From Clytia hemisphaerica (lineage: Eukaryota; Cnidaria; Hydrozoa; Leptothecata; Clytiidae): 64,000 nucleotides of DNA. Positions 9,401 through 61,499 of this stretch are shown piece after piece. The notes below the pieces were generated by a model. That model made no database searches and was not told the DNA's origin. It was given only the letters and a program-made list of their open reading frames with translations. Position 1 is the first letter of the stretch; every line of letters begins with the position of its first letter. The DNA is taken from the NCBI GenBank assembly GCA_902728285.1, contig CACVBU010000948.1:573190-637189 (forward strand), in the 5' to 3' direction. A program made the translations under genes and the position numbers.

Positions 9401-12400
9401 AATTATTTACAGTACTCCCTTAATCGCATTTAAGACAAAAGAAGCGCAGTGCATTTCAAATGAACAAAGCAATTCAATGGCCTCAATGGAGAAAAAGCAT
9501 GGTGAATTTTCAAGAAAACAGGGGACTCAACCAACAAGGTGGATCAAATTAAATTCAAATAGGAAATATTTTTCGGTGAGCTAACAGTACTCGCTTAATC
9601 GCCTTTGAGATAAAAACACCATTGTTCATTTCAAATGAGCAAAGATATTTAATTGTCTCAATTGAGAAGAAGCATAGTCGTCATAATTGAAGTCCAAGAT
9701 ACAGGCCCCATCATCCAAATGGATCAAAGTTAATAATGGTCAATTTACCCTAAAAGTAATTTTCCTGATGTGGATGTACCGGGTGGTGCCTTCTTTACTT
9801 TACTGATTTTATTTTGAGTCAGCACGTTTCGGATAGGAATTCTGACCACCGATACTCTTGTATCCTGGTTGTTAGATTATCACCAATGCCTTCACAATGG
9901 AGTTGAAAACATCAGTTCCTTCAATTAGAGAATCAGGCCCGATCTTTCCAGCTTTATTTTGAAGCACAAAGTCAATAATTTCAGATCTTTGTCCAACATC
10001 TTCATAGATGAAAAGCTTCACTAAAATTTGTCTCGTATATGCAGCTTTTAATTTTAGTCTTTCTTTTATCTTGTTTTGGAATCAGCTCAATTTCTAACTA
10101 ACTTTGATAACTTCAAAAGTTAAAGCTATGAAAAGTAAGTTACAATACAAATTTGATTTCAACATTACGTTCCATTGAATTAACAAGGAATATATTCAAT
10201 AGAATAATTAGTTTGTGATGTGTTGCATGCTGGAGAAATCACCATCAAGATAAAAACCAACAACTACATCATTTGAAATGAAATTGTTCAATTTATCCCA
10301 ATGGTGAAATTATCATAGTGTCGAAGTAATAGAGACACCCATTAACCAACAAGATGGATGAAATTAAGTCAAAGTTATTCTATTGTTGATTTTCAAACAA
10401 TGACATTACTATAAGTTTCTAATGTCTGCATCAAACAACCGCAAGAGCAAAAATCTTTTCCTAAACCAGTAACGAAGTATGAAAATAAATCATCTTTATG
10501 CAAGTAGCTCTATCACAAACTATAGCTAAAGTAAATCCTAATTCTTAATTCAGCATTTGATGCTCATTCATTGACTTAGGATTTACTTTAGTTATAGTTT
10601 GTGATAGAGTCACAAACTATAACTAAAGTAAATCCTAATTCTTAATTCAGCATTTGATCCTCATGCATTGACTTAGGATTTACTTTAGTTATAGTTTGTG
10701 ATAGAGTCACAAACTATAACTAAAGTAAATCCTAATTCTTAATTCAGCATTTGATCCTCATGCATTGACTTGTAAAAGAGTTGAGTTGGAGAATTCATTC
10801 TTAAATAAGAAAATATATTCAAAATCGACTCTATCGTGAATCAAAATAAATCATCTTCAGTTTTCTACACTGTACACATTGATTGCAGTTTAAAACATTA
10901 ATTCACTTGAACCTTGAATTTCACTTGATAGGAAATTATTCTGAGAAATTTGTTTGACTTGACTTTCAAGCTATTAAAAGATTCCCGGGCGTGCCCGAAG
11001 CTAACCTTTCGCAGGCAAATTTAATGAATTACAAATTTGTTGACAGGGGCTTATAAGGAAAAATTCAGATTTTTTTGTAGTAATATTTTTTGTTCACTAG
11101 ATGGTCCTCTTTCAAACGAAACAAAAAATTTTCAATTTTGACGATTTTTTGATTGTCGATGACGTCATCGATGACGTCATTTTTAAAGCTATTTTCCTTA
11201 TCAGCTTCTCAAATATTGATTTTCAGGTATATGTTGTGATATTTTTTGGAATCCTTGGATAAAATATCTTTCATTTGAGCCATTTTCGAGCTTCTAATTT
11301 TCACTTTCATTTTCAAGCCCCAGCAAAAGTGATGACGTCACATGGGGATCAGCAAAATGGTCAAAATTTTTCTCACCACTCGTTTTTGTGATCTTATGGA
11401 CCTAATTGATCATTTAAAAAAGTTAGTTTGCTTTGAACAACTCTGTGCACACGAAGAATGTTTTCAGAACATAGTGGCTCTCACATAGAACAATTTGGAA
11501 AAGTCCTTCTACGATGAGGGAAACTTTCTAAATCTGCTCTATGGCGAAATCACTATCATCGATCGAACAAGGCGATTCATTGGCCTCGATGGAGAAAAAG
11601 CATTGTCAATTTCCAAGAAAACAGGGGACTCAACCAACACCAACAAGGTGAATTAAATAACAAATTAAATTCAAATAGGAAATATTTTTTTGTGAGCTAC
11701 AGTAATCGCCTAATCGCCTTTGAGACAAAAAACACCAAAGATTCATTTCAAATGAACAAAGCTATTTAATTGTCTCAATAGAGGAGTAGCATAGTGGTCA
11801 TAACTAAAGTCTAAGAAACAGGCCCCGTCATCCAAATGATTTATCAAAGTTGATAAAGGTCAATTTACCCTATATAAATTTCCTGATATGGTTGTATCGG
11901 GTGGTGCCTTCTTTACTTTACTTTACTGATTTTTGTTTTGAGTCTGCACTTTTTTATGTGAATGTTTCAGTGTTTCATTTTTTACCAAAAAATATGTGAA
12001 CTTACTTTTCTGAAACTCAGCATCCCATATTAAAGGAAATTTTCAATTTCCTGTTCTCTTTTCCGATTCCAGTTATTTCTTATAAGTTAGTAGAAACCAA
12101 AGTGCGCAAACTTATTCATTGAATGCATAAAGCCATGTGAAGTGAGCTCTACCAAAGTAACATAATATGAATGCAACATCTTCTTTACACCATAGGTTCA
12201 GATCATTCGGGAACCAAATTGAACTATTCCTTGTGCAGCAAATCTTGAGACCAAGCAAAAAGTTTAGAATATCTTCTAAATCTCGAAGTTTTCCAGTCCT
12301 TTGATAATTAAAACAAACAATGACTCTAAGTGGAGCCAAATAGAAGAGAAAATTTCTGAAAAAAAAGTCTTCTGAATTATCTCCATTGTGAATCAACCAA

Positions 12401-15400
12401 GCAATTTTGTGAACATGGTAGGCATATCGGTTGCAAACTCAGCAAATTTTTTAGTCCTTTGATAATCATGGTAAAAATAAACTTCACAATAGAGCTAAGC
12501 AGACAGAGAGAGCTAACTAACGATTTTTCCAAAAAGAAAAGCCCTTTTAGATTAGCTGCATTGTGAATCACTATTAAGCAATAATTGTGTGACCATTGTC
12601 AATGTTAGTTGAACTCTATGATTTGAATGAGTTTTTTAATCCTTTGACGGACACTATAAACAAAGACTTCACAACTGAGCCAAACAATCGAGGTGCATTT
12701 CGTAAAGAAAAGCCCTTCCAGATCAACTCTATTGTGAATCACTATGAAGCAATAATTGTGTGGGCATGCTCTATGTAAGTTTCAGAGTCTCTAATTCGGT
12801 TCTCCATAACTCGACAAATTTCGTTCTTTTGATGAACGCGATAAACAATGACTAATAGAAAGGGTGATTTCTGAAAAAAGTCTTCTGAATTAGCTCCATT
12901 GTGAATCAATCAAGCAATTTTGTGAACATGTAACATATCGGTTGCAAACTCGACATAATAAAATAAGACTTCACAATAAAGCGAAGCAAATGAAGAAGAA
13001 AAGAAAAGCTTTTCTAGATTAGCTCTATTGCGAATCACACATATGAGAGTATGCTGCTCTATATAAGTTATACAGTGTTGACATTTGATGAGTCGTTCAA
13101 CTGCCGATGACAGAAATGAGGATAAAGCAACAATTTTGGAGAGCAAAATTTCTTTACCTACAATCTCTATCAGCGTACAGCCCGCAGACACATTTGTACG
13201 TTTCGAAAGATTTACAAAATAGTTTTGTTGCCAGTTTGTTCGTACGCTGGATCCAAAACCCAATTCAAGATTCGGAACCTGAAACACTCTGATAAAAAAT
13301 TGAATTATTTTGAATTTTCATTGCGTCAAAACATTGTCACGTGATAATCTCGTGTTTCAAAATTCAACAGCAGAACCAAATCCTAGTGTCGTCATAGAAA
13401 TCAAAAGCAAGACTTTTTTTTAAAAGAAGATTTCTATCATCAAACAATAGATGATGATTGGTTTCACTTTTTGAGTACCGTTCTTTTTGCAACTCTCGCA
13501 AACACGTTTTATTTAGCCACCAACTCATTGGTAGTCGATTATAATCAAAGAACAAAATTATGTTTGCTTCTCAATTTCGATCACCAAACAGTTTATTCCT
13601 AATCCAAACTTCAGCCAGCTGTGGTGGCTTTTTTAGTATTTCAGTCAGTAGCAAGCACCATTGATTTCTGGAAAAGACCCACTCAACTATCCCTTTTTCG
13701 ATAATCTTATCTATCAATCTACATTTTTTTTTAGTACAATGTTGCGGTCTCCTCTTTGAGCACGATGAATTTGCCATTTCTCATTAGTAGAAATTCTAAA
13801 GAAGAAACTTTCTGTGTAAGAGAAGCTATAATATTTTGCAAAGTAATTTTATTTACTTTAAAAAATCTAATATATACCGTTTAGTGGGGGTGAAATAAGG
13901 GTGAAAAGTCGAAAATTTTCTTCGTCGCGCAACCATGGTCGGCGACATAGTTTTTTGGCCCCCTCAATTCGATTCGCACGCCGGGGGCCATGAACCAAAC
14001 ATTTTTTTTTAAGATTTGATATCTCTCTAGATGCAATCTTTTGGACTCAACTTTAAACACGACAAATTCATTAGTAGTAGTAGGTCCATTTGTAATCCAA
14101 ATAACTTATTTTGACCAAAATTTTATTTTACAGACCAGACTACCACTGGTCCACTATTTGCCCAAAATCCTCGACTGGTCCACTATTTGCCCAAAATCCT
14201 CGACTAGTCCACTATTTACCCCAAATCCTCGACTGGTCCACTATATACCCAAAATATGTCACTGGTCCACTATTTACCCAAAATATGTCACTGGTCCACT
14301 ATTTACCCAAATTGTCTCACTGGTCCACTATTTGCCCTAAATCCTCGACTGGTCCACTATTTACCCAAAATATCTCACTGGTCCACTATTTACCCAAAAT
14401 ATGTCACTGGTCCACTATTTACCCAAAATATCTCACTGGTCCACTATTTACCCAAAATATGTCACTGGTCCACTATTTACCCAAATTGTCTCACTAGCCC
14501 ACTATTTACCCAAAATATGTCACTGGTCCACTATTTACCCAAAATGTCTCACTGGTCCACTATTTGCCCTAAATCCTCGACTGGTCCACTATTTACCCAA
14601 AATATGTCACTGGTCCACTATTTACCCAAAATATGTCACTGGTCCACTATTTACCCAAAATATGTCACTGGTCCACTATTTACCCAAATTGTCTCACTGG
14701 TCCACTATTTGCCCTAAATCCTCGACTGGTCCACTATTTACCCAAATTATCTCACTGGTCCACTATTTACCCAAATTGTCCATCGTTTACCCAAAATATG
14801 TCACTGGTCCACTATTTACCCAAAATATGTCACTGGTCCACTATTTACCCAAAATATGTCACTGGTCCACTATTTACCCAAATTATTTCACTGGTCCACT
14901 CTTTACCCAAAATTCCTCGACTGGTCCACTATTTACCCAAAATTCCTCGACTGGTCCACTATTTACCCAAAATATGTCACTGGTCCACTATTTACCCAAA
15001 ATATCTCACTGGTCCACTATTTACCCAAAATTCCTCGACTGGTCCACTATTTACCCAAAATATGTCAGTGGTCCACTATTTACCCAAAGTATAAGCATAT
15101 CTAGGTGTATGCCAAAAACTCTTGAAGCTTTCTGAGCCTGATTTAAGGAGACTGATTGTTTGTAATTTTGTGTGAACATTGTCTATGTTAGTAACTCTCT
15201 AATTCGAATTTTCATAACTCGGAAAGTTTTCTATTCTTTTGATGAACATGATAAACAAAAACTTCACAATAGAGCCAATCTATCGAGGTGCATTTCGTAA
15301 AGAAAAACCCTTCTTGATCAACTCTATTTTGAATCAATATCAAGCACCTATGTGAATATGCTCTATGTTAGTTGCAAACTATCCATAATTCGAATTTTCA

Positions 15401-18400
15401 TAACTCGACAAGTGTTCTGGTCTTCTGATGAACATGATAAACAAAAACTTCACAATAGAGCCAAACAATCAAAAAGCAATTCAAAAAGAAAAGCCCTTCT
15501 TGATCAACTCTATTGAGAATCAATAATAAGCAATTGTTTGCTCCGTGTTACCTACAGGCAAGTTTTCTGGTCTTTTGATGAACATGATAAAAAAAACCTT
15601 CACAATAGAGCCAAACAATCAAAAAGCAATTCAAAAAGAAAAGCCCTTCTTGATCAACTCAATTGAGAGTCAATAATAAGCAATTGTTTGCTCTGTGTTA
15701 GCGACAGGCTCTCAATCTACTACTTCCTTTACTCGACCAAGTGTTCTGGTCTTCTGATGAACATGATAAACAAAAACTTCACAATAGAGCCAAACAATGA
15801 GAGGTGAATTTCGTAAAGAAAAGCCCTTCTTGATCAACTCTATTGAGAAGCAATAATAAGCAATTGTTTGCTCTGTGTTAGTGATAGGCTCTCAATCTAC
15901 TACTTCCTTTACTCGACCAAGTTTTCTGGTCTTCTGATGAACATGATAAACAAAAACTTCACAATAGAGCCAAACAATCAAAAAGTAATTCAAAAAGAAA
16001 AGCCCTTCTTGATCAACTCTATTGAGAAGCAATAATAAGCAATTGTTTGCTCTGTGTTAGCGATAGGCTCTCAATCTACTACTTCCTTTACTCGACCAAG
16101 TTTTCGGGTCTTCTGATGAACATGATAAACAAAAACTTCACAATAGAGCCAAACAATCAAAGTGTAATTCAAAAAGAAAAGCCCTTCTTGATCAACTCTA
16201 TTGAGAATCAATAATAAGCAATTATTTGCTCTGTGTTAGCGACAGGCTCTCAATCTAGTACTTCCTTAACTCGACCAAGTGCTCTGGTCTTTTGATGAAC
16301 ATGATTAACAAAGACTTGACAAAAGAGCAAAGCAGAGGAACTTTTCAAAAAGAAAAGCCCTCTAGACAGCTCTATTTTGACTTAATATTAAGCAATTGTG
16401 TGAGCATGCTCTGTTAGCTACAGGCTCTCAATCTCGAATTTTCATAATTCGGCAAGTTATCTGGTCCTTTGATGAATATGATAAACAAAGACTTCACAAT
16501 AGAGTCAAACAATCGACTTGCATTTCGTAAAGAAAAGCCCTTCTAGATCAACTCTATTGTGAAACACTATTAAGCAATTGTGCGAGTATGCTTTATGTTA
16601 TAGTTTCAGATTCTCAAATTCAATTCTCCATAAATCGAACTTCCGTAACTCGACAAAGTTTAATGAACATGATAAACAAAAACTTCACAATAGAGCGAAG
16701 CAAGTGAAGTTCTTTCAGAAAAGTAAAACCCTTTTAGATAAACTCTATTGTAAATCACTATTAAGCAATAATTGTGTAAAGAAAACCCTTCAAGGTCAGC
16801 TCTACTGTGAATTACTGTTGAAAATTTCTGATTTCAGTTCACTGTTTTACCAAACATCTCCCTTACGGAACTTCCACGCGTTTTAAATTCATTTCTTCTA
16901 GGTTCCCCATTAGAGAAATCTATTTTTTTTGTAAGGGGTTATCCTGCTGTGTTGCAGCGAAAAATATATTCAATTCAATTCAATATTCATAGCCAGAGAA
17001 ATTCTGTTTGTGCCTTGGGATTAGTTTTGTCTTAGTTTTGTTGATAGGAACTTGAAAGACTCAAAGAATAATACTATAATACTATAATACTATAATAAGT
17101 ATAAGTACTATAATACTTAATAAGTTTCTACTAATTCTATCACCACCACTGAAACCTTTTCATTTCAAATTAACGAACTACACTTACCAAATTGACCAAG
17201 CTCTCACTTCGTTTTCTCAACAAACTGATTATAGTGTATGTAATAGTTATCGGACAGTTGCGAGTACAATATGAGAAATATTTTACGAGTTCCGAGAATT
17301 TTCCGTACAATATACGGAAAATCTGGAACGAGTAAGATATTTCCATATTGTGCGAGCAAATGTCTGATAACTGGTTTATCGGTGACCCAAAAAATGCACT
17401 TTTTGTGTTGGAAAAAAGCCCAGGGCACTTTTGTAGCAAAGCGACGTTAGATTGCTTCTACCGCTACAATGCAACAACATCTTTTCGTCAATTTATATTT
17501 TTACATGTAAAATACAAGATATATTGTACTCTTTTTAACCACTCAGATTGCAGATATTTTTTGGATCGCCGATAAAGACAAAAAACAAAATTCTTCCAAG
17601 TGGACTTTAAAAGACTTTAAAAGTTATTACTGACGTCAAATATTTTTTTAAAGTATTGACGTCAAATATTTTTTAAGTATTGGAGTCATTTTCAGAAATT
17701 TCAGGGTTCATCTTCATACCCCTTAATGTAATTGAAAGTTTTTTGTCACTAAACGAAACCCACACGTTGGGTAGTTCTTCAGAAAATGTTTACCCTTTCC
17801 AAAAAAATTGCGTTTATTCCAATCATCTGTTTATCGAGCCCCTGATTGTTTTGGATTCAAATATTTTTCAACACAGATGAATTATTATTCTTACTGCTGC
17901 CGCCCGGGTACAGCCTTGTTTCATAAAAAAAAAAAAAACCATTTCGGTTTATGACACAACAGAGCCTAATACTGAAGTTGAATCTACAAAACAAAACTCC
18001 TTTACGACTTCAATCATCATCCATCTTGAAAAGGATTGACTCCTTATTTAAAAGCTAGAGCAGACGAATATGCTGTTTTTTGTCGATTAGAAACAAATCA
18101 TACCATTACCACAGATCGGTATTTCACTTCAAATTGAATCATCTCTAAACAAACTTTTTTTACGATTGGTGCTAACGGAAACTTCACCAAAATTGTTCAC
18201 TGTAATCATTTATCGGTGATTGAACATGAAAATAATTTGGCTTTATGATTGAAAAGAACAAACTATTCCCAATTTCAATCATCAAACAAATTATAGATCG
18301 TAGATTCTTAAATGAAATCAATCCACTTATACTAGCGTTTATTTTGGAGGCATTAAAAACTCTGATTTGCTGAAAACCTTGCACATTAACATATTATCCA

Positions 18401-21400
18401 ATCAGAGAGTTTGTTTACTTGATATTTTTGGTGCAAATATATGAAGAATTAGAACGAATCAAATTCGAAACCTACTGCTGGCTTAATATCATCGATGCAC
18501 TCGCAATATAACCTGAAATTATCCCGTCGTCAATAAAAGAATATGATGGTATATAATCTCTATTGTTATATACCTGTAGGCAAAAACAGCCATTGAATAA
18601 TTCCTGATATACCATGGGTATCATACCACGGTAGAATTTTTTTAATAAATCTCAATAACCAACTTTTACCCATTGAATATCTGCTTATTATAAATGCAGA
18701 AAACGACAACTGCGTATTAATTCATATTAATTCACTTTACACGGCTTTGCATGTTACATTCAATAGAACCCATTTTAACTCCACCACAAAAACTGTAAAT
18801 TTGTCGAAATCGTAAATCTTATTACACTCTACGTGTTCTTAATTATCACTGTACGTGCCATGGAGAACGAATCACCCTCTTCTGTTTGACCAAAGAACTC
18901 GATTGTATAACAAGCCTCTACTACGGATCATTGGCACGTCCATCACATTTACTGCTTACTCGATATAATTACATTCGCGATAGAACCAAAAGAAATTTCA
19001 ATTCAAACAAGAATAGGTGATTGTAAATAGGCTCTATTGGGAATGATAAAAACGTCAGCTAGTCAATAGCTTCACGCTACTGGTGGCAAAATCATCGATA
19101 TACATACATTTTCAATAGAACCCTAAACAATTTCAAATTCAATAAAAGAACACAACTGTAAATAGGCTCTATTGCAAATGATGAAAAGGTTAGCTCCTCC
19201 AAAGATTCACGACTACTGTTGGCAAAATGATCGATATACATTTGCGATAGAGCCTGAAATGGTTCTCGAATTTAATAAAAGAACACAACTGTAAATAGGC
19301 TCTATTGCAAATAATGAAAGCATCAACAACCAATCTCTTACACTTTGTGAATCTACCATCAAGTCTAGCACCAATCAAATCTATCGCATAATTAAATGGA
19401 AGAATAGGCGAATCCAATATCAATATTTCTTGATTGACAGGACTTTGATACTTTGCTGACAATCTAGCATAGTATCCTCACTGACACTTTTTGTTTGTAT
19501 AGCCTTCATTGTGTTTTCAATAGAGAAATAATAAAGTTCCACCTCTCTTCAAATGGAAAAGGGAAGAACTCGTCACTATTGAAAACCAATATCTAATGGT
19601 ATACTATACTTACAAAAATATGATGTGGACACTTTGTGTTTGTATTGCCTTCATTGAATTTTCAATTGAGAATAAACTTCCATCTCTCATCAAATGAAAA
19701 AGGGAAGAACTCATCTCTATTGAAAAACAATATTTACTTGTATCCTACATTTTTACCCTTTTAAAGGAAATTAGAAGGATACACTTCCATTAAAAGTGCC
19801 TGTCCATCATTTTTAACCATCGATTCACACAATAGGGTATCGTGGAAAATGTTTTCTTCCAGAAAAGAAAATACCTTCCAAATCATTCTATTGCGAATCG
19901 AAATTGCTCCCTATCCATGCTATTTTGTATGCTATCTTTTGTTAATCAATATTAAAATTAAAATATAATAGCCGCATTTTTTTTCCCTGTTTAACACATT
20001 GTGAATCAATATTAAGCAATTGTCTGAAGATTGTCTATGTTAGTAACTCTCTAATTCGACTTTTCAATGATCGTTTGATGAACATGATAAACAAAGACTT
20101 CGCAATAGAGCCAAACTATCGAGGTGCATTTCATAAAGAAAAGCCTTCTTGATCAACTCTATTGAGAATCAATATCAAACACCTATATAGGCGAGTATGC
20201 TATATTTTGGAGGGTCTCATTCTCAAACTTTTATAACTCGAACTTCCGTAACTCGACAAGTTTTTTGGTCTTATGATAACCATGATAAACAAATACTTGA
20301 CAAAAGAGCAAAGCAGAGGAACTTTTCAAAAAGAAAAGCCCTTCTAGATCAACTCAATTGTGAACTAGTATTAAGCAATTGTGTGAATATGCTCTGTGTT
20401 AGCTATATGCTCTCAATTTCGAATTTTCATAACTCGACCAAGTTTTCTGGTCTTTTGATGAATATGATAAACAAAGACTTCACAATAGAGCCAAACAATC
20501 AAAAAGTAATTCAAAAAGAAAAGCCCTTTTAGATCAACTCTATTGTGAATCAATATCAATTACCTAGAGCAATCTATATATTGGAGGCCTTCAATCTCAA
20601 ACTTCTCTAACTCGAACTTCCATAACTCGACAAGTTGTTTGGTCTTATGATAATCATGATAAACAAAGACTTCATAAAGAAAAGCCCTTCCAGATCAACT
20701 CTATTGTGAACCACTATTAAGCAATTGTGTGAGCCTGTGTTAGCTAAAGGCTCTCAATCTTGGACTCTTTGGATGAACATGATAAACAAAGACTTCACAA
20801 TAGGGCGGAGAAAATCGAAGTTCTTTCCGAAAAGAAAAACCCTTCTAGGTCAATTACTATCAAACATTTACATCAAACATTGGTATGGTATCAAATACCA
20901 ACCATCAACAATACTACAATCATAGCAAAACTACAAGTATAGCAAAACTGACAGTTCGTGTCTTTTTGATGAGATAATCAACACTTCTTCTTCTTCTTTG
21001 ACCCTAAGAAGATTTAAACATCTATGTTCGGAAAAAATGACCTAACTGAACAATTTGTTGGAACTTTTTTCAAGAAGATTTCAAAAGTGACGTCAAATAA
21101 ATTTTAAAAGAACATTGACGTCAATTTTTAAAACTTTTTCCTGCGACACTGACACGAACATCTTTACAAGATTATTTAATTTAGAATTAATTCCGTTTTG
21201 AGGAGAAAAGACAATTGACAATGCTGATGCAAAAAAATACTGTTTGTTTGTCTTTAAACTCAGTTTTGCTAATAGGAACTTGAAGAACTCCTCGTTCCTC
21301 AGAAAAGAATGAAAAGTCTCCTCTAATCCTATCACCACCACTGAAACCTTTTCATTCTCAAATGAACAAAGTACACTTATAAAATTTGCAAGGCTCTCAA

Positions 21401-24400: not shown

Positions 24401-27400
24401 CAAGATTCGAGTCAAGTGTACCCGTGGGTCTTTGCCATTCAAATTTATAAACGAAACATAAGAACCGGGAATTTGTACAATAAAAATCAAACAATACTTC
24501 TTTTCCTAAGTAACCTCCTTACTGTACCTTGCATTATTGGAATCATCCGTCGATAATAGAAATCAAGTTCAAAAGCAACTTTTCCACATGAAAAAAATTG
24601 TTTGGCCTGATCCTAACATCAACAATCCTCCGCAAGAGTCGGGTCGATTTTTTCTCGTGGGTATTTGCCATTCAAATTTGTAAACTAAACTTAAGAACCA
24701 TAAAACAGTGAAAATTCAAACCTTTTTCTTTAAACTAACCACCTTACTGAACCCTGGATTATTGGAATCATCCGTCAATGATAGAAATTAAAGCCAGAAT
24801 TACATTTTGCTCCATATGAAAAGAAGCTGCTTTTTGGCATGATTTCTACCATCAATAATCTTTCGCATAAGTAGTTTTTAAAATATAATCGGACATATCT
24901 TTGTGAATATGCGTTGACCATGTGTTGATCATCGCTTGGCCATAAAAATAGCTGCAAAAACGTTTCATTTGAAAAAAGCTCTTCTTTATTTCAATACCAG
25001 ACAGAAAGAGCCTTGTTGTGCTTGATATATTTAAAACTTGAAGTTATACAGTGTTGACATGAAATGAGTTGTTCAACTGCCGATGATAGGAATGAGGATA
25101 AAGCATTAATTTTTAAGATTACAAATTTCTTTACCTACAATCTCCATCTTACAGCCTTCAAACTATTTATATAATTCGAAAAATTTGCAAAATACATTAT
25201 GTTGTTAGTTTGTTTGTACGCTGAATCGAAAACCCAATTTACGATTTGGAACCTGACACACTCTGATATAAAATAAGTACTAGTTATCGCATGACTTCGA
25301 GTGCAATACGAGAAATATTTTACGAGTTCCGAGATTTTTCCGTAATATTTTTCCGAGCCTTTAGGCGAGGGGGGAAAAATATCGGTAAAATCTCGGAACG
25401 AGTAAAATATCGAGTATTGCACGAGAAGTCATGTGATAACTAATTTATTGTCGACTCAAAAAAATTGTCCTGATATAAGTTTCTTTTTGTTTTTGTTTTA
25501 AAACTTACTTCTTACTTCCGCCTTGCTTCTTTCTTCTGTGTAGTTTCGAATGTTTTTATTCGAAAATCTAATTCGAACGTTAGATTCGAACAATAAAACA
25601 TTCGATATTTTTTTTTTTTTTTTTTTTTTTCTTGTTCTCTTTTGCCACCAATAATCTGGTATATATCAGTATATATAATAAGTCTCTGAAGGTAAATATT
25701 TACATTTAAAAAAAAAGAAGACAAAAATCCTAAATATATCTAGAAAAAAAAAATAAGTTTTCGTTTTTTTAAAGTGCGTGCAAACAGAATAGTGATCAGT
25801 AGACCACTAAGGGCGAAAAGCGGGCTCTGGGAAGAAACAACACTCCGTTGCGGGGCCTATCCGCAGGTGAGGGTTGTTTCTCCCGAGATTACGTTCCGTC
25901 CGGACTGTAGGAATCTCCCTCTTGATAAACAAAAACAAAGTAGAACCTAACCGATTGAGATACTAATATTCAGCAGGAGATTCCCCGAAAATGTAAACAT
26001 AGGACAAAACAGGCAGAAACAGGACGATAGAGGTCCTGAAGAATTCTGTCCTGGAGCTATGGAAAATGCAAATGGATATGTTCCCGCCGAAAATATTCAC
26101 ACAAAAACAAAACAGAGAATAAGCATTTTTGATCATTTTCGATCCAGAAGTTTTGTTTTGAAGAGTTGCAGATTTTTCAGAGATGAAAGTTTCTAGATTG
26201 ATAATTCAAAATGCAGATGGTGTACAGTATTGTTTCGACAGAGAAGAAACCCTTCATCATTGATAACATTCAGTCTTTTTCTATGTTTTTGTTTCGATGC
26301 ATGGAAAAGAATAGCAGAGGAATGGAAAAGAGTTCCATGATGGAAGTTCCATGATGTATGCTTGTAATAATGGTTAAAGAACAACATTTTTTCAAGAGCA
26401 AAACAATTTGGATACTTTCTTAATTATCGTCAAAGATTTAAATGTTTCGAATTTTAGAAGGAAGATGTAATGATTGTTGAGTTGAAAATTCAAGGACGTA
26501 CCTCGTCGAGAACGAGAATTAGGAGAGAACTTTTATAAAAATCACTCGTCATTTGGTTTAATAGAAGACATTTCACTTCCCTTGCTATGTTATGAGAAAT
26601 CTTATTGGCACAACGTTCAAGAATATCAAGTTTTTTTGTATGCATTGATAAAAAACTGTTTGGTTATCACACGGACGAATTTTATACCAAAAGCTGACAA
26701 TATTTGGGTGGTCTCAAGCAGTTTTTTAATTTCTTAGTTCATCAGATTTGATTTTAGTGTCTTTTATGGAAGAACTCCAAAGTAAAAGTTAATCTGAAAA
26801 TATTTTTGTTGCGTTTTTTCCCTTTGACTCCCAGTTCTTTTCGGCTGTTTTGTTTTGATTTTTCTCCCGCCGCTTACCCAGTCCCCCAAAAGTCAACGCG
26901 GTCATATTTCCATACTAGAGAAATATGAAATATCACAAATATCTCGATGCTCTCGACCAATCAAAACGCTGATATTTTTTTGGGTCGGCAATAATGAAAT
27001 ATATTATTTCTGAATTTTCATCGTGTCAAAAAATTGTCATAATAATTTCGTGTTTTAAGATCCAATTTGAGCAACGGCAGAACCAAATCCTAGTGTCGTT
27101 TTAGAAATCAAAAGCAAGACTTTCTTTTATAAGAAGATTTGTCCCTGACTTCTGTCATTAAACAATAACAATGGTTGGTTTCGCTTTTTGAATGTACCGT
27201 TCTTTTTCAACTCTTCTCAGCGTTGTTGAACTATCAACTCGTTGGTCGTTGATAGCAATCGAAACAACAAAATAAAAAGTTTGAAATAAACTTCTGCTTC
27301 TCTCAATTTCAATCACCAAGCAGTTTAATCCTGATCCAAACTTCACCCAGCTGTTGTTGCTTTTTTAGCATTTTAGTCAGTAGCAACAATCCTTCAAGAA

Positions 27401-30400
27401 ATATTTGAGACAAATGGGAAATTCCCCAGGAAGTTTTGAAACCACAATCGATTTGTAAGTGCTCTAAAGTAGGTTCGAAGGGTAGAGTTTTAACTCTGAG
27501 TTTTAACACTAGACTTAAGACATCTGAGGATTCAAAAGTTCAAAAATGGTCCAGTAAGGCTCCGAATATAGCCTGGAAGTCTGTCTACCCGTCTCAAATT
27601 GAAATATTAAAGAGATATAAATTAAATTAAAGAGATAGCCCAAAATCGGCTTTTTCGCCCGAACTTTAAATCTCGAAAAACGTCAAAATAACCCGAATTC
27701 TCAATATATTTCTTGAAAGATTGAAGCACCTTAGGCTATAAGGCGGTCTCCGTCTTTTTGGACCTACCTAAGGGCCGAAAATAGCGGAAATATGCCGGAA
27801 AAACTGGTTTTTCGGCATTTTCTCGAGATTTCATCATTAGTTTTTTCTGATTTTTTGCTCAAACATGCGTATTAACAATGCCCAAAACATGGCCTAGTCC
27901 GATTTTTGAGAAAAAATTTTTTCCGGCCGAAAATGCCGGAAATATGCCGGAAATCGCCGTTTTTCTGGATTTTCATTGGACTTTTCCATATAATTGGTTG
28001 TTTTTTCATTCAAAAAGATTATTAATAGCAATGCCCACTATCAAGCATGTTTCAATTTTCAATAAAATTGATTTTTGAAGCCGGAACTTTCTAGAAATCG
28101 CCGGAACAGCCGATTTTCGCCGGAAAAACGGTATTTCTTGAATTTCTTGAGCTGTACTTCATATTTTTTCATGAAATTTTGTACACTGATGCATATGTCA
28201 ATACCTAAATTTTGACGGAGCCCGATTTTCGAAAAAATTCATTTCCGGCCGAAAATGCCGGAAATATGCCGGAAAAACTGGTTTTTTGGCATTTTCTCGA
28301 GATTTTATCATTAGTTTTTTCTGAATTTTTGCTCAAAGATGAGTATTAACAATGCTCAACACATGGCTGAGTCCGATTTTTAAGAAAAAAATTTTTCCGG
28401 CGGAAAATGCCTGAAATATGCCGGAAATCGCCGTTTTTCTAGATTTTCATTGGACTTTTCCATATAATTTGTTGTTTTTCCACTCAAAAACATTATCAAT
28501 AGCAATGCCCACCATCAAGCATGTTTCAATTTTCAATAAAATTTATTTTTGAAGCCGGAACTATTTTAAAAGTCGCCGGAACAACCTATTTTCGCCGGAA
28601 GACAGTATTTCTTGAATTTCTCGAGCTGTACTTAATATTTTTTTATGAAATTTTGCACACTGATGCAATATGACAATACCTAAAATGTGACGGAGCCCGA
28701 TTTTCGAAAAAAAAATTTTTCCGGCCGAAAATGCCGGAAATATGCCGGAAAAACCGGTTTTTTGACTTTTTCTCGAATTTTCATTCTCAGTTTTTTCTGA
28801 TTTTTTGCAGAAAGATGCGTATTCGCAATGCTCAAAAAATGGCCGAGTTCAATTTTTTGAGAAAAAAAATTTTCCGGTTGCCGGAAATCGCCTTTTTCGC
28901 AGATTTTCATTGGATTTTTTCCTTGTATTTCTATGTTTTTCACACAAAAACATTATTGATAACAATGCTCAATCAAGCATGATTCAATTGTCAATAAAAC
29001 TGATTTTTGCGACCAGAATTTCCTATTTATTTTTTCCCTACAACCCTTCTCTCTCCCCCCATCAACAATCAATGATGAATTTATTGTGTTGTGTATTTTG
29101 CTAAATGCTATATTTTCTGACTGATTTTTTTCATTTTTCTTTTTGCATTGCTAACTAACTTTCATCATCAGGTAGGTCCATTCAGCATGTTGCTTGTCTA
29201 TTTTGTGGATACCGGCTCATGTATTATTAGTGTTCAAATGGCAATTAAATAGTTACTTATTAACTTTGATTTCTGGCTTGACGCTCGACTAATCGGGCAA
29301 CCCTTCTTCGACAATCTTGTTTATCTATCTACATTTTTTTTGAAAATAGTGTTCTCTCCTCTTTGAGCAAGATGAATTGGCCATTTCTCAATAGTAGAAA
29401 TTCTAAAGAAGAAACTTTCTGTGTAAGAGAAGCTCTTCTTCTGATTTCTACCATTTCAAATGCACTTGACCAAAATCTTTTGAAAATTCGATTTACTATC
29501 GGATTGGTAATATGGAAATGCAAATAGAGAGCTGAAAACACCCTTTATCCACTTCAATCACCAAAAATAATTTTATAAAGTTATCCCCGATTTCTACCGC
29601 CCAAAAACGAACTGGTCCACTATTTTCAATAAAAAAGTATTGCATGAGATAATACAGTGTAAGTACGATGAAAAGATCGTAAAATAAAATATCGTGATTA
29701 CAGAGTGTCAAAATCAAGTCGCTCTCGTTGATAGAAGACAAATCGCTCGTCTTTCACAGTAAAGAAATAAGCGGCGCCTTCTCTTCTATCACCAAAAATC
29801 CGCTCAATTATGTTTTTTCAATCAACATAGCAAAATCATTATTTGGTCATGGAAACAAAGTCATTTTCGTTGATAGAAGATAAATCGCCAGATTTTCACA
29901 ATAAAGAAAGAAGCGGCGCCTTTTCTTCTATCACCAAAAATCCTCTCCATCTCCATAATGTTTATTCAATCACCATATCAAAATCATTATATTTGGTCAT
30001 TCAAACAAAAAGCCGTTCTTGTTGATAGAAGACAAACGCCAACTTTTCACAGTAAAGAAAGAAGCGGCGCCTTCTCTTCTATCACCAAAAATCCTCTCCA
30101 TCTCCATTATGTTTATTCAATCAACATATTAACAAAATCATTATTTGGTCATGGAAACAAAGTCGTTCTCGTTGATAGAAGACAAGTCGCTCGTCTTTCA
30201 CAATTAAGAAAGAAGTGGCGCCTCATCTTCTATCACCCAAAATCCTTTCCATCCCCATTATGTTTATTCAATCACCATAGCGAAATCATTATTTAGTCAT
30301 GAAATCAAAGTCGTTCTCGTTGATAGAAGACAAGTCGCTCGTCTTTCACAATTAAGAAATTAGTGGCGCCTTTTCTTCTATCACCAAAAATCTGCTCCAC

Positions 30401-33400
30401 CCCCATTATGTTTATTCAATCACCATATCAAAATCATTATTTGGTCATGGAAACTTAGGGCCATCTTGTTTTGTATAGTCAAAGTCTAGTATGTTATACG
30501 ACTAAGAGTAAGAAAATGCAGGGTATTGTAATGTAAAAAAACTGAAGGACATTATTCAACCAATATTATTTTATAACAGTCTCGGTATTATCATATTACA
30601 TTACTGTATAACCACGCGGGTTACGTGTTTCCGTTGGGAAATGGGCGGCTTCATTCCCCATCCCAAGAGTTTCATATCTGGCTTTGAAGTGAATGGAGAA
30701 TTCACGAACAACCTTGCCGTAATTTATGTTGTTTTTGTTTTATTACATTTGCAATAGAACCAAACACATTCAAAATTCAATAAAAAATAGGTGATTGTAA
30801 ACAGGCGCTATTGGAAATGAAGAAAACGTCAGCTATTGCATAGCTTTAAGCTTCTGTTGGCTAAATTATCGATACATTTGCAATAGAACATGAAACAGTC
30901 AATATTCAATAAAAGAACACATGATTTTAAAACAAGCTCTATTGGAAATGAAGATACCGTCAGCTTGTTCATAGCTTCACGCTTCTACCGTCCAAATTAT
31001 CGATATACATTTGCATTCGCAATAGAACCAAACACATTCAAAATTCAATAAAAGAATAGGTGATTGTAAACAGGCTCTATTGGAAATGAAGATACCGTCA
31101 GCTTGTTCATAGCTTCACGCTTCTACCGTCCAAATTATCGATATACATTTACATTTGCAATAGAACCAAACACATTCACAATTCAATAAAAGAATAGGTG
31201 ATTGTAAACAGGCTCTATTGGAAATGAAGATACCGTCAGCTTGTACATAGCTTCACGCTTCTACCGTCCAAATTATCGATATACATTTGCATTCACAATA
31301 GAACCAAACACATTCAAAATTCAATAAAAGAATAGGTGATTGTAAACAGGCTCTATTGGAAATGAAGATACCGTCAGCTTGTTCATAGCTTCACGCTTCT
31401 ACCGTCCAAATTATCGATATACATTTACATTTGCAATAGAACCAAACACATTCACAATTCAATAAAAGAATAGGTGATTGTAAACAGGCTCTATTGGAAA
31501 TGAAGATACCGTCAGCTTGTTCATAGCTTCACGCTTCTACCGTCCAAATTATCGATATACATTTACATTCGCAATAGAACCAAACACATTCAAAATTCAA
31601 TAAAAGAATAGGTGATTGTAAACAGGCTCTATTGGAAATGAAGATACCGTCAGCTTGTTCATAGTTTCACGCTTCTACCGTCCAAATTATCGATATACAT
31701 TTACATTTGCAATAGAACCAAACACATTCAAAATTCAATAAAAGAATAGGTGATTGTAAACAGGCTCTATTGGAAATGAAGATACCGTCAGCTTGTTCAT
31801 AGCTTCACGCTTCTACCGTCCAAATTATCGATATACATTTACATTCGCAATAGAACCAAACACATTCAAAATTCAATAAAAGAATAGGTGATTGTAAACA
31901 GGCTCTATTGGAAATGAAGATACCGTCAGCTTGTTCATAGCTTCACGCTTCTACTGTCCAAATTATCGATATACATTTGCAATAGAGTCCGAAACAAATT
32001 CAAATTCAATAAAAGAACAAGTGATTGTAAATAGGCTCTATTACAAATGATGAAAAACTGGATTAATTCCTCACTGTGCTACAAGAAAGTTGCATTACAG
32101 TACGATGAATTCAAAATTGAGTCGTTTATCGGTGATAAATAGAGTTAGTCCAATTAGCAAGGGTTTTTCAATTTCAAAGTTTACATAGTTTCATAGATTA
32201 CATAGATTCTTGTTCTGTTCATAGTGGCCCTTCGTGGAAACAATTCATTAGCTGCCTAAAAGCTATTGAATTTTTCGGAGCATGCCACTTAAAACATATG
32301 TTAATAATAATATCCTGAAAAATGCAGCTTGATCTCCGACTTCAAATATCTGTATGAACCATTTATACCAAAGCAAAGAATATTTTGAATCATCTGCTGT
32401 TGATAGCCACTTAAAACGAAACGATCTTCGTGAAAAGAAACATTGGTTGTCCGTGTCCATTACCGAGCAAATGACCTCATTACTTCAGTAAGATTTTATT
32501 TGGAATTTCAGTCATCTGTTGATAATAGAAGAAGATTAGCGGTCGTCATTCTGTGAAAGAAAGAAGTCCGTTATCAACTTCTATTAACAATCAGCTCTCA
32601 TGTATCATTGGTATAAAACTTTCGAGTTCATTACTTCAATAAGATTTCATTTATAATTTCAGTCATCTGTTGATAATAGAAGAAGATTAGCGGTCTTCAT
32701 TCTGTGAAAGAAAGAAGTCCGTTATCAACTTCTATTAACAATCAGCTCTCATGTATCATTGGTATAAAACTTTCGAGTTCATTACTTCAGTAAGAATTCA
32801 TTTAGAATGTCAATCATTTGTTGATAATCGATGAAGATTAGCGGTCGTCATTTTGTGAAAGAAAGGAGTCCGTTATCAACTTCTATTAACAATCAGCTCT
32901 CATGTATCATTGGTATAAAACTTTCGAGTTCATTACTTCAATAAGATTTCATTTATAATTTCAGTCATCTGTTGATAATAGAAGAAGATTAGCGGTCGTC
33001 ATTATGTGAAAGAAAGAAGTCCGTTATCAACTTCTATTAACAATCAGCTCTCATGTATCATTTGTATAAAACTTTCGAGTTCATTACTTCAGTAAGATTT
33101 CATTTAGAATGTCAATCATTTGTTGATATTCGATGAAGATTAGCGGTCGTCATTCTGTGAAAGAAAGGAGTCCGCTATCAACTTCTATTAACAATCAGCT
33201 CTCATGTATCATTGGTATAAAACTTTCGAGTTCATTACTTCAATAAGATTTCATTTATAATTTCAGTCATCTGTTGATAATAGAAGAAGATTAGCGGTCG
33301 TCATTATGTGAAAGAAAGAAGTCCGTTATCAACTTCTATTAACAATCAGCTCTCATGTATCATTGGTATAAAACTTTCGAGTTCATTACTTCAGTAAGAA

Positions 33401-36400
33401 TTCATTTAGAATGTCAATCATTTGTTGATAATCGATGAAGATTAGCGGTCGTCATTTTGTGAAAGAAAGGAGTCCGTTATCAACTTCTATTAACAATCAG
33501 CTCTCATGTATCATTGGTATAAAACTTTCGAGTTCATTACTTCAATAAGATTTCATTTATAATTTCAGTCATCTGTTGATAATAGAAGAAGATTAGCGGT
33601 CGTCATTATGTGAAAGAAAGAAGTCCGTTATCAACTTCTATTAACAATCAGCTCTCATGTATCATTTGTATAAAACTTTCGAGTTCATTACTTCAGTAAG
33701 ATTTCATTTAGAATGTCAATCATTTGTTGATATTCGATGAAGATTAGCGGTCGTCATTCTGTGAAAGAAAGGAGTCCGCTATCAACTTCTATTAACAATC
33801 AGCTCTCATGTATCATTGGTATAAAACTTTCGAGTTCATTACTTCAATAAGATTTCATTTATAATTTCAGTCATCTGTTGATAATAGAAGAAGATTAGCG
33901 GTCGTCATTCTGTGAAAGAAAGAAGTCCGTTATCAACTTCTATTAACAATCAGCTCTCATGTATCATTTGTATAAAACTTTCGAGTTCATTACTTCAGTA
34001 AGATTTCATTTAGAATGTCAATCATTTGTTGATATTCGATGAAGATTAGCGGTCGTCATTCTGTGAAAGAAAGGAGTCCGTTATCAACTTCTATTAACAA
34101 TCAGCTCTCATGTATCATTGGTATAAAACTTTCGAGTTCATTACTTCAGTAAGATTTCATTTAGAATGTCAGTCATCTGTTGATAATCGATGAAGATTAG
34201 CGGTCGCCATTCTGTGAAAGAAAGGAGTCCGCTATCAACTTCTATTAACATTCAGTTCACACATGCATTATAAAAAAGATTTTATTTTGACGTCAGATTT
34301 TGATAGAATACTGACGTCGGTATAATTATTATGACAAGTTTGTGATAGAAATTGTAAAACAAAGTCGCAAAAAGTAATGATTATCATGGCATGGTCATTA
34401 TTTCCATGATAGAGACAATGATTTTCTGTTGTCTTCTAACCACGAGGAGGTTAGGAAAGTCTCATCTGCTGCTGGTAGAAATTCAGGAACCCCTTCTTGG
34501 TCAAAAGATAAGAATTGTACTGTGCAGTATGAATTGTACGAACGCTTTTCGCGCAGTTAATATTGTTTTATGTAGGTTGTTATCATTATACAAGTGCCAT
34601 AAACTCGAAAAGTCATTTGTCAGTAGTAGAAATCATCGAGAGCAGATCCTCTATCATAAAAAGAGATTGATTTCTCTGATTTCTATCACCAACAAGATCT
34701 TTTTTCCTGTTCTATTTTCTGCTGATTTAATTCCAAATTTTAATTGAAACCTCGTGACAAACGAATACCAATGCGAAATGACAAAAGTCTCATATGTCGA
34801 TGATAGAAAAAAACAACGAATTTGTCGGTCAAAAGACAACTGGTAATTTATTTCTATCACCGAACAGGTGCTTTCAACTTTTAACTTAACTAATTATACG
34901 GCAATGCGGAGGGGTTTCACTCTCAATTCACTCTCGACGATTCTCCGTGTATGTCGTCCCCAATAGTATCAATTGATGTTCTCGCCAAAACTTCCCCTTT
35001 CTAAAATCCAGAATTTTGACCCAAATAAAAAAGAAATTCGGAAGTTAGTAATATCCATAACACCTTCCCCTGATTTGAATTTGAGCAAAATCTGAAGATA
35101 TAACTTCCACCCACTTCTGTCTGACTCTAACAGAGAAAGACTCTTAAAGTCTCCATAGAGGCGATCATGTTTTCCTCTGGTGATATCGTTCGTATCACTT
35201 CGAGTTTTAGGCCTCTAAAGTGCTCTTATTTTCACCATTTTGTGAATGTTTTAGAGTCTGCGAAGCCTTATAAAATGTCCTTAATATTTTTGTCATCGAA
35301 ACCTTGTTCTTATAGTAAAAAAAGGTTTATGTCTGTAAAGATTCGTATACTTTCGTTTGTAAAGTGTTGTTTACCATGTAACCATCATCATAAAGAAGAA
35401 AGATGCATCGAGTTACAGTGGTTCTTACCTGCATCAAGTACTGACTCAAAGTCATCATTTGCGATAATAGACTTCGCCTTGAAAATTTCACCTGCCATAG
35501 CAAGCAATTTGCCTTAATCCTGGCTTTTTGACTAAACTCTCCTTAATACATGATCAGTGTTTTTCGTTTTGAGTTTCGTTTGAAAATTTTTTATTTGACG
35601 TCATCTTTTACAAAAAGTTTACGTCACTGAGAGGTATCATTTTCCATGTTTTTAGTGTTATTGGGTTGTTATTTAAAACCAAATTTTTGAGATTTAAACT
35701 ATTTGTTAATGACCAAAATAAGGAGGAATATTCTTTGATGAGACTGTGTTTTTCAGTTTCCATCACTGACAAACTTCTAACTAATCAAAACGTCTACCTT
35801 GATCGAGTTGAAAAAACTAGACCCTTATTGAAAAAAAAAAGAAGCTGCTTTCTGATCTCGATCACCGACAGGCTTCTCGCGATATCAAAAAATTTCATGC
35901 ATCCTTTACAAATGACATAATTTCTAATCTGTACACCATTTTGTAGAGCAGATTGTTTGGAAACAGTTGTTTGAAAATTAGTAATATGAGTGAGGAAATA
36001 ATGCGTCGAGTTATAATCAGAAAACAAAAATATCCCTTCTCACAAGTATTTGTTTCACCTACCTTCTTAAGGGAAGAAATTTTCGCGGAACAAATTTTCG
36101 CGAAATTAAATTCCATCACATATAAAATTGGTCTTTTTAGGGCAAAATAGGCCATATTTTAAGCAAAAAATCCTCTCAATCGCGAAGTTAAATTCCGCGA
36201 AACATCCGAATTTTAAGCTGTGAACTGCGAAATTAAATTCCGGGAAAATTTCTACCCTTAAGGTAATCAATTCATATTTCAAGGTTGAAATTCAGTCATT
36301 CATCGGTGGTAGAGTAAAAATCAATATTTTCTGTGAACAGAAAATATTCATTTCTCTTTCTCTATCACACGTCAAATGAGCTTTCCTTATAGAAAGTCTT

Positions 36401-52590: not shown

Positions 52591-52599
52591 TGATTTAAA

Positions 52600-52800
52600 T
52601 ATAGCTAAAGTAAATCCTATTCCTAATTCAGCATTTGATGCTCATGCATTGACTTTGAATTGAGTTGAGTTGGACAATTCATTCTCAAATAAGAAAATAT
52701 ATTCCAAACCGACTCTATCGTGAATCAAAATAAATTATCTTTATGCAAGTAACTCTATCACAAACTATAACTAAAGTAAATTCTAATACACCGTTTAGGA
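52600..52800. repeat. Copy of the GCTAAAGTAAATCC repeat
   Basis: Contains GCTAAAGTAAATCCTA, TTCAGCATTTGATGCTCATG, GACTCTATCGTGAATCAAAA and ACTCTATCACAAACTATAAC in the same order as 8880-9020 and 10500-10860. A dispersed family member outside the gene. Confidence 0.85.
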
Positions 52801-60128: not shown

Positions 60129-60755
60129 ATGTTCTTATTTAAATGTGTATTAACTTTAAGCTTATTTATCTCTTTTCAAATCTTTTTTTTTTTTACCTCA
60201 CAGACATTCGAGAATTTAATCACCTGCTGTTGCAGTGCATTTTTTATTCGATATACTCTACATTTACATCATTGTCTAGGAAATTGCAATGTCCAAAGAA
60301 AGATCATAATTAGTATAATTGACGATTAAAAAGGTTATCGTTACGTTATTTCTAATAGATTCTATTTCTAATAGTCTGGCTCAAAAGAAGCTTTGTTTTG
60401 AAAAAAAAATAATTAGCAATCTAAAACGGCATACCGGATAAGTGGGATGGGGGAACCTGGGAACCTAAAGTGGGAACCTAAATGAACACCTGAAAAGACC
60501 TAAGTGGGGAGAAAAGGGGTGGGGGAACCTAAGTGGGAACCTAAATGAACACCGGAAAAGTGGGATGGGGGAACCTAAGTGGGAACCTAAATGAACACCG
60601 GAAAAGTGGGATGGGGGAACCTAAGTAGGAACCTAAATGAACACCGGAAAAGTGGGATGGGGGAACCTAAGTGGGAACCTAATTTTTTATTTTTTTTATT
60701 TTTTTTTTTTATTTTTATTTTTTTATAGCAATATATTTCGCAGTCTATTGACCTC

Positions 60756-61445: not shown

Positions 61446-61499
61446 AATTTACCCAGTGTTAAAACATGAAACTGGTTCGGATGAAATTCTAAAAGCCGG

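What the first reader, a model, noticed from the sequence alone, without database searches (positions are those of the whole stretch)
12260..36370. Unrelated arrays share one design: inverted ATAGA / TCTAT arms around a 40-60 nt spacer
At least seven repeat families (A, B, C, E, F, the 19.5-kb pair and solitary units) differ in almost all their sequence. Yet each unit has an arm containing ATAGA or ATAGAA (TTCACAATAGAG, TTTGCAATAGAACC, GTTGATAGAAGA, GTTGATAATAGAAG, GTCGATGATAGAAA) and its near-complement 40-60 nt later. Conserved arms with free spacers suggest selection or a mechanism acting on the paired arms, such as an RNA stem, a protein-binding dyad, or ends of very short mobile units. 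I do not know a described family with this form.
Basis: partly seen in the sequence, partly recalled or inferred. Interest (0 to 1): 0.75.

Follow-up and report, generated by a model that had tools for sequence, protein, structure and literature searches.

The report
MicroRNA-like hairpin arrays in mTOR intron
One long intron of an animal's mTOR gene holds about 80 related units that would fold as RNA hairpins much like microRNA precursors and share one short fixed core; whether they are transcribed or cut is not known.

Summary
The arm pairs are real: in the intron 43 of 84 ATAGA have TCTAT 40-65 nt downstream, against 1.5 +/- 1.3 in shuffles; the 34 kb outside have none. All arrays lie in one 29.6-kb intron of an animal mTOR gene. 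The families are not unrelated: a model of one family finds others, mostly in one orientation. The spacers are not free: they continue the stem. Each unit is an approx. 82-nt hairpin, with about 27 nt of stem above and 9 nt below the base before a near-fixed AUAGA, and a 6-nt loop. Across families the arms change in pairs. Wobble pairs point to the strand antisense to mTOR, except in family F. Best explanation (0.55): a tandemly grown cluster of microRNA-like precursors whose conserved 'arm' is a shared seed and its complement; nearest known case, the mouse Sfmbt2 intron-10 cluster. Main rival (0.25): a hairpin-forming repeat without small-RNA product. There are no expression data, no genome and no relatives, so transcription and processing are inferred.

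The parts
8290..37917 (+). mTOR intron (GT donor at 8290, AG acceptor ending 37917, phase 0 on both sides) that holds 79 of the 80 units
   Evidence: sequence; mTOR exons by Pfam; exon correspondence to human mTOR by recall
8654..11554 (-). five upstream units: 8654-8730, 8942-9024, 9312-9394, 10763-10846, 11473-11554
   Evidence: model R2, E 0.019 to 1.2e-8
12318..13040 (-). family A, first group: units at 12318, 12477, 12662, 12964
13098..13593 (-). two weak solitary units: 13098-13182 (E 0.059) and 13522-13593 (E 0.026)
15257..16760 (-). family A, second array: nine units (15257, 15443, 15593, 15772, 15952, 16131, 16310, 16487, 16678), period about 150-180 bp
   Evidence: tandem repeats, R1 and R2
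18207..18291 (-). solitary unit with paired core change (ATTGA/TCAAT); related unit at 21424-21505
   Evidence: alignment, R2
18968..19317 (-). family B, first group: three units (18968, 19103, 19235)
19508..19732 (-). the 19.5-kb pair: units 19508-19591 and 19653-19732
19820..19903 (-). unit S; second copy at 22588-22671
   Evidence: nhmmer with family A, partial match, E 0.0014; R2
20093..20869 (-). family A, third array: units 20093, 20291, 20473, and a weak one at 20788
21260..21344 (-). solitary unit with paired core change (ATAGG/CCTAT)
21424..21505 (-). solitary unit related to 18207-18291
21687..21768 (-). weak solitary unit (E 0.079)
21999..22475 (-). family B, second array: four units (21999, 22133, 22264, 22395); the last two fold poorly
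22588..22671 (-). second copy of unit S
22814..23589 (-). family A, fourth array: five units (22814, 23007, 23151, 23330, 23511)
24304..24861 (-). three solitary units: 24304-24396, 24544-24628, 24769-24861
29382..29463 (-). solitary unit
   Evidence: (E 0.049)
29719..30393 (-). family E array: five units, period 148 bp
30742..32053 (-). family B, third array: ten units, period about 138 bp
32513..34257 (-). family F array: twelve units, period 151 bp, in two alternating types; wobble pattern favours the plus strand
34614..34869 (-). two solitary units: 34614-34698 and 34791-34869
35790..36377 (-). two solitary units: 35790-35874 and 36297-36377 (the latter listed by R1 on plus only)
52647..52730 (-). 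unit outside the intron, downstream of the last mTOR exon found, in a repeat shared with 8.9 and 10.7 kb
   Evidence: R2 E 8.5e-6; blastn 83-90% over 136-146 bp

Best explanation
The intron holds a large cluster of microRNA-like precursor hairpins, probably read from the strand antisense to mTOR. Shown here: about 80 related units of about 82 nt can fold into an imperfect stem of roughly 36 nt per arm with a loop of about 6 nt; across families the pairing is kept by paired changes; a five-base core (AUAGA) stays nearly fixed at a position where a 5p small RNA would carry seed nucleotides 2-6; pairing is strongest at nt 4-7, weakest at nt 9-12 and ends near nt 28. Inferred: a long antisense transcript is cut near the hairpin base, RNAs of about 22 nt beginning (A/G)AUAGA are loaded into an Argonaute, and the many types act as one seed family with differing 3' parts. 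The cluster grew by tandem duplication of units of about 131-180 bp and of larger blocks. Not shown: transcription, cutting, loading, targets.
For: ATAGA-TCTAT pairs 43 against 1.5 expected, one order only, intron only. Whole hairpins of 28 cluster representatives z -3.89 on minus against -0.35 in controls, inner segments -1.29 against -0.03. Covariation across 31 units 0.399 against 0.235 +/- 0.013, slid partners 0.14-0.18; inner pairs alone 0.371 against 0.233. A model of family A alone finds other families, mainly on minus. Geometry in 78 of 80 units with at least 4 of 5 core bases: 27 nt (IQR 26-28) from the base before ATAGA to the last apical pair, loop 6, 9 below, close to published pri-miRNA stems of about 35 bp cut 11-13 from the basal junction (passages). 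Pairing profile with seed peak and central dip. G-U 222 against A-C 75 on minus with strand-neutral scoring; T-rich cores, unskewed spacers in A and B.
Against: No RNA data of any kind. Rfam: no match at gathering. No covariation within family A (0.101 against 0.110). Many solitary units were first noticed because they fold, which favours pairing; the anchor at ATAGA inflates the apparent fixation there. In the count of pairs (not cells) with two-sided change the inner stem does not beat shuffles (15 against 14.0, 193 of 500). Plus-strand hairpins are nearly as significant (z -3.20) and show the same profile more weakly. Family F has 0 G-U and 18 A-C on minus, the opposite of the rest, and half its copies fold badly on minus. 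The 3' flank of family A is as conserved as the hairpin (0.84-0.85), so the hairpin is not singled out there. Several B copies have decayed pairing (22264, 22395). The loop is shorter than the 8-38 nt quoted for pri-miRNAs. At Sfmbt2 a similar repeat block gives 65 annotated microRNA genes in mouse but 1 in rat, so such a block need not be productive.
Confidence: 0.55

Rival explanations
1. A hairpin-forming repeat (satellite or MITE-like) that spreads by tandem and segmental duplication. The inverted arms matter for its spread or are an inherited accident, and no small RNA is made.
For: Tandem arrays and a segmental duplication; a dispersed copy with shared flanks at 52.6 kb; flanks of family A as conserved as the hairpin; some copies with decayed pairing; no covariation within A.
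Against: No flanking direct repeats (4.83 against 4.63 +/- 0.19 in 24 representatives); paired changes across families including the inner stem; mostly one orientation; G-U against A-C asymmetry in four of five groups; near-constant stem length.
Confidence: 0.25
2. Sense intronic microRNAs: the hairpins act in the mTOR pre-mRNA, on the plus strand, and are cut from the host intron.
For: The plus strand is transcribed with mTOR in any case; plus hairpins are significant (z -3.20); family F pairs better on plus.
Against: G-U 222 against A-C 75 favours minus overall; A and B are more stable on minus; the plus pairing profile is weaker.
Confidence: 0.1
3. Hairpin RNAs that feed siRNAs or another structured RNA class, for example decoys or binding sites for a double-strand RNA protein, without a defined mature strand.
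For: Many near-identical hairpins in tandem; no proof of a single product.
Against: Stems of only about 27 + 9 nt with mismatches at nt 9-12, and a near-fixed core at one position, fit single-product precursors better.
Confidence: 0.06
4. A DNA-level dyad: the paired ATAGA/TCTAT half-sites bind a protein dimer and the spacer is irrelevant.
For: The pentamer is the most fixed part and the order is nearly always ATAGA then TCTAT.
Against: Outer and inner positions change in pairs; even the core does in a few units, as ATTGA/TCAAT and ATAGG/CCTAT; inner segments pair; strand asymmetry of wobbles.
Confidence: 0.04

Closest known systems
Mouse and rat Sfmbt2 intron-10 microRNA cluster (C2MC)
   Same: A block inside one intron of a protein gene, built from head-to-tail units (296-nt MSHORT1 with an approx. 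83-nt pre-miRNA part), grown in two phases, 65 annotated microRNA genes in mouse (abstract and passages of PMC3212979; abstract of PMC3110154).
   Different: Host gene mTOR, animal not named; about 28 sequence clusters rather than one repeat kind; probable antisense strand; no B1 or CA/TG origin was looked for; expression unknown here.
Animal pri-miRNA hairpins in general
   Same: Stem near 35 bp, basal part near 9-13, strong pairing in the seed region, mismatches in the middle (passages of PMC8865264 and PMC7174388).
   Different: Loop of about 6 nt is short; UG, UGU and CNNC motifs were not tested; no reads.
MITE- or repeat-derived microRNA genes
   Same: Short inverted-repeat elements giving hairpin transcripts (listing and abstract openings of PMC10004981 and PMC10136691).
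   Different: No target-site duplications found, mostly one orientation, tandem and confined to one intron in this window except one copy.

Membership tests
microRNA gene | Imperfect hairpin of about 35 bp with a single terminal loop | tested here: met
   median 27 nt above and 9 nt below the base before ATAGA, loop 6, in 78 of 80 units; some units, mainly in F and B, fold poorly
microRNA gene | Phased 20-24-nt reads from both arms with 2-nt 3' overhangs and a fixed 5' end | not testable with these tools
   no read data and no named organism
microRNA gene | Pairing maintained by selection | tested here: inconclusive
   across families strong, within family A none; units partly chosen by folding
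microRNA gene | Transcription of the hairpin strand | not testable with these tools
   no RNA data; only indirect wobble evidence
Known microRNA family in Rfam 15 | Score at or above the family's gathering cut-off | tested here: not met
   0 matches; 10 permissive matches, 9 to microRNA families and 1 snoRNA, all below cut-off; 5 of the 10 lie over units (MIR3627 four times over E, mir-1251 once over A)
MITE / DNA transposon | Target-site duplications | tested here: not met
   flanking direct repeats 4.83 against 4.63 +/- 0.19 in 24 representatives; exact ends are not known, so the test is limited
Protein-binding DNA dyad | Fixed half-sites with an unconstrained spacer | tested here: not met
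   spacer pairs and covaries; arms change in pairs

The most novel reading that the evidence does not exclude
A seed-locked small-RNA cluster: about 80 hairpins inside the mTOR intron, antisense to the gene, have diversified in nearly everything except a shared AUAGA seed core, so that the animal would make one very high-dose seed family whose 3' parts and opposite arms turn over fast, as expected of an arms race against a repeat, virus or selfish element, or of feedback on the host gene.
Probability: 0.15. Interest if true: 0.8.

Novelty: new variant of a known kind. Interest (0 to 1): 0.6.

Why it matters
If the hairpins are processed, this would be a large microRNA-like cluster, similar in number to the Sfmbt2 block, placed in the gene of a central growth regulator. 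Some 28 diverged clusters with one fixed core in one locus would show what a precursor must keep (stem length, seed pairing, central mismatch) and what it may lose. If they are not processed, it is a telling case of a hairpin repeat that imitates microRNA genes, which matters for annotation.

Tried and rejected
RNAalifold on family alignments with flanks gave few pairs for A and B and strand-dependent, partly different folds for E and F; I went on with per-sequence pair probabilities. Covariation inside family A: none. Target-site duplications: no excess. Own genome: none held. Text search for six candidate strings gave one paper, an unrelated coronavirus RNA-structure preprint. Searches for a tandem, antisense or mTOR-intron microRNA cluster (two of them, 39 and 63, returned no paper) led to Sfmbt2 as nearest; I saw nothing in the listings that describes this locus, but listings were capped at 10-20 rows and cover only the held open-access library. 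Family E profile: its best match outside its own array is at 47677-47716 (E 0.037), not one of the units. A first inner-segment control returned no number and was repeated with that fault handled. In one search the printed 'E<0.01: 74' was typed in, not computed; recounted from the table it is 74, of which 73 are in the intron. Rows left out: of 85 minus-strand R2 matches up to E 1, I kept 80 (E up to 0.079) and left out 9622, 27246, 20638, 27096 and 45629 (E 0.2 to 0.75). In one search, 28 of 30 representatives were used on minus (two had fewer than 4 core bases); these 28 rows stand for 26 of the 28 clusters. The strand-neutral count used 83 hand-listed cores, not the 80 units. 31 units trained R2, so its E-values for them and their near copies are not independent; R1 is the fairer test. 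Scripts took the intron as 8291-37917; the donor is at 8290.
Full report
WHERE IT LIES. Exons on the + strand encode mTOR: mTOR_dom in 3096-3659, FRB in 44291-44740, PI3_PI4_kinase in 47912-48178 and 48450-48740, FATC in 51375-51716. A 109-residue stretch of one exon matches chains named mTOR at E 5e-42 and chains named TOR2 at 6e-32, so I take the source to be an animal; the species is unknown and no genome is held. The exon ending ...FMEHCEIK is followed by GT at 8290, and the exon starting [12 protein letters not shown] is preceded by AG ending at 37917, both at a codon boundary (exon matching by recall of human mTOR). All arrays of the finding therefore sit in one intron of 29.6 kb.

IS THE PATTERN REAL. 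In the intron 43 of 84 ATAGA have TCTAT 40-65 nt downstream, against 1.5 +/- 1.28 (maximum 6) in 200 block-wise dinucleotide shuffles. The reverse order is at chance (1 against 1.4). The 34 kb outside the intron have none in the ATAGA-TCTAT order. Inverted repeats in general are also in excess in 12.0-36.4 kb, 69 against 16.4 +/- 4.2, partly through other repeats such as poly-T.

THE UNITS LOOK RELATED. Sequence-only profiles on both strands give cross-hits between families A and B, nearly all on minus and many full-length, with E from 0.006 to 8.8, so most are not significant one by one. A finds part of S at 0.0014, and F finds one E unit at 0.09; the E profile finds neither (its best outside match is at 47.7 kb, E 0.037). 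A covariance model of 20 family-A hairpins (R1) finds B (best 4.9e-6), F (1.5e-5), the 19.5-kb pair (6.5e-5), upstream units (4.1e-5 and 1.2e-4), S (0.002), a solitary unit (0.016) and E (0.036), in each case with a higher score on minus than on plus where both are listed. Two intron places scored better on plus or there only: 9594 and 36302. A broader model R2, trained on 31 units, gives 85 minus-strand matches up to E 1; I keep 80 (E up to 0.079), 79 of them in the intron. They form 28 clusters at 80% identity.

THE SPACER IS PART OF THE STEM. With 22 nt cut from each side, the inner segment of 28 cluster representatives folds better than its shuffles (z -1.29 on minus, -1.27 on plus), while 120 control segments of the same intron do not (-0.03, -0.16); p 3e-5 and 8e-4. 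Whole hairpins have z -3.89 on minus and -3.20 on plus, controls about -0.35. On the alignment of 31 units the inner pairs alone have a covariation score of 0.371 against 0.233 +/- 0.018 for shuffles and at most 0.211 for slid partners; but the number of pairs with a two-sided change, 15, is no more than in shuffles (14.0).

PAIRED CHANGES. Over the whole stem the covariation score is 0.399 against 0.235 +/- 0.013, and 167 cells are changed on both sides against 86; slid partners give 0.14-0.18. By eye the outer arms TTCACAATAG...CTATTGTGAA of A read TTTGCAATAG...CTATTGCAAA in some B copies, two paired changes; the core itself changes in pairs in a few units (ATTGA/TCAAT, ATAGG/CCTAT). Within family A there is no such signal (0.101 against 0.110 in shuffles). 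Two cautions: many solitary units were first noticed because they fold, and the shuffle control does not remove relatedness.

CONSERVATION. Among 21 family-A copies pairwise identity is about 0.79-0.82 from the 5p arm to the loop, 0.49 on the 3' side of the loop, 0.87 in the 3' arm, and still 0.84-0.85 over the next 20 nt of flank; in F it is 0.87-1.00 throughout; in E the core block is 1.00. So the hairpin of A is not singled out from its flank.

GEOMETRY. Counted from the base before ATAGA, the last apical pair lies 27 nt away (median; IQR 26-28), the loop is 6 nt, and about 9 nt of stem lie below, in 78 of 80 units with at least 4 of 5 core bases. The mean pairing profile on minus (28 of 30 representatives) peaks at nt 4-7 (0.89-0.98), dips at nt 9-12 (0.54-0.63), is 0.65-0.79 at nt 13-20 and ends near nt 28; the plus strand shows the same shape more weakly. 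Sequence information is concentrated at nt 2-6, but the anchoring on ATAGA inflates this. Published pri-miRNAs have stems of about 35 bp cut about 11-13 from the basal junction, and wobble or mismatch in the seed region lowers cutting (passages of PMC8865264, and PMC7174388). The plan agrees; the loop is shorter than the 8-38 nt quoted there.

STRAND. With scoring that treats G-T and A-C alike, arms of 83 hand-listed cores on minus hold 222 G-U and 75 A-C mismatches: A 68:9, B 44:12, E 6:3, others 104:33, but F 0:18. Hairpin cores of A and B are T-rich on minus (AT skew -0.25 and -0.27) while their own spacers are not (about 0). Against shuffled columns the asymmetry is smaller: in the outer helix G-U 46 of 63 expected and A-C 18 of 39; in the alignment of A alone it is absent. 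The consensus structure for the whole-stem version was itself found on minus, which favours G-U there. I read this as moderate evidence for an antisense RNA, with F unexplained.

MECHANISM. Shown: related hairpins of near-constant size with a fixed core, multiplied in tandem in one intron, whose pairing is kept across families. Inferred: antisense transcription, cutting at the base, and a product of about 22 nt with AUAGA at nt 2-6. The 'conserved arms' would then be the seed and its complement in the opposite arm, and the 'free spacer' the 3' part of the product, the loop and the rest of the opposite arm.

COMPARISON. The nearest published case that I found is intron 10 of mouse Sfmbt2: head-to-tail units of 296 nt, each with an approx. 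83-nt pre-miRNA part, in a 55-65 kb block with 65 annotated microRNA genes in mouse but 1 in rat (abstract and passages of PMC3212979; abstract of PMC3110154). The rat case is a warning that such a block need not be productive. The present locus differs in host gene, in the number of diverged types and in probable strand. Rfam has no match at gathering; of 10 permissive matches 9 are to microRNA precursor families and 1 to a snoRNA, none near its cut-off, and only 5 of the 10 lie over units.

VERDICT. Observation partly confirmed; interpretation partly supported. Best reading: a microRNA-like cluster (0.55); main rival: a hairpin repeat without product (0.25). One stranded small-RNA library would settle it.

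Noticed in passing
14144-15092: 29-bp minisatellite of about 33 copies (CACTGGTCCACTATTTACCCAAAATATCT) in the same intron, open in several frames.
   Followed up: no
10508-10771: 97-bp tandem units with 29-bp perfect inverted arms; a related stretch lies at 52597-52790 beside the unit outside the intron.
   Followed up: partly
17266-17351 and 25317-25408: Two related-looking long, nearly perfect inverted repeats (36-37 pairs) in the intron, unlike the ATAGA units (for the first, for the second).
   Followed up: no
27773-28877: 474-bp repeat rich in GCCGGAAAT, with similar sequence at 49973-50369 outside the intron.
   Followed up: partly
60511-60682 and 62522-62681: The same 46-bp repeat in opposite orientations, about 2 kb apart, around a 230-codon open frame at 60756-61448 (-) that looks like a reverse-transcriptase end by recall; Pfam gave no match at 1e-3.
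   Followed up: no
32513-34257: Family F alternates two unit types; one has an intact and the other a partly broken arm on minus, and its wobble pattern is opposite to that of the other families.
   Followed up: partly
8654-9674 and 10226-11790: Two similar stretches on minus that carry hairpins in the same order, suggesting a block duplication (seen by eye).
   Followed up: no
9872-10081: 69-codon open frame on minus inside the intron, not identified.
   Followed up: no
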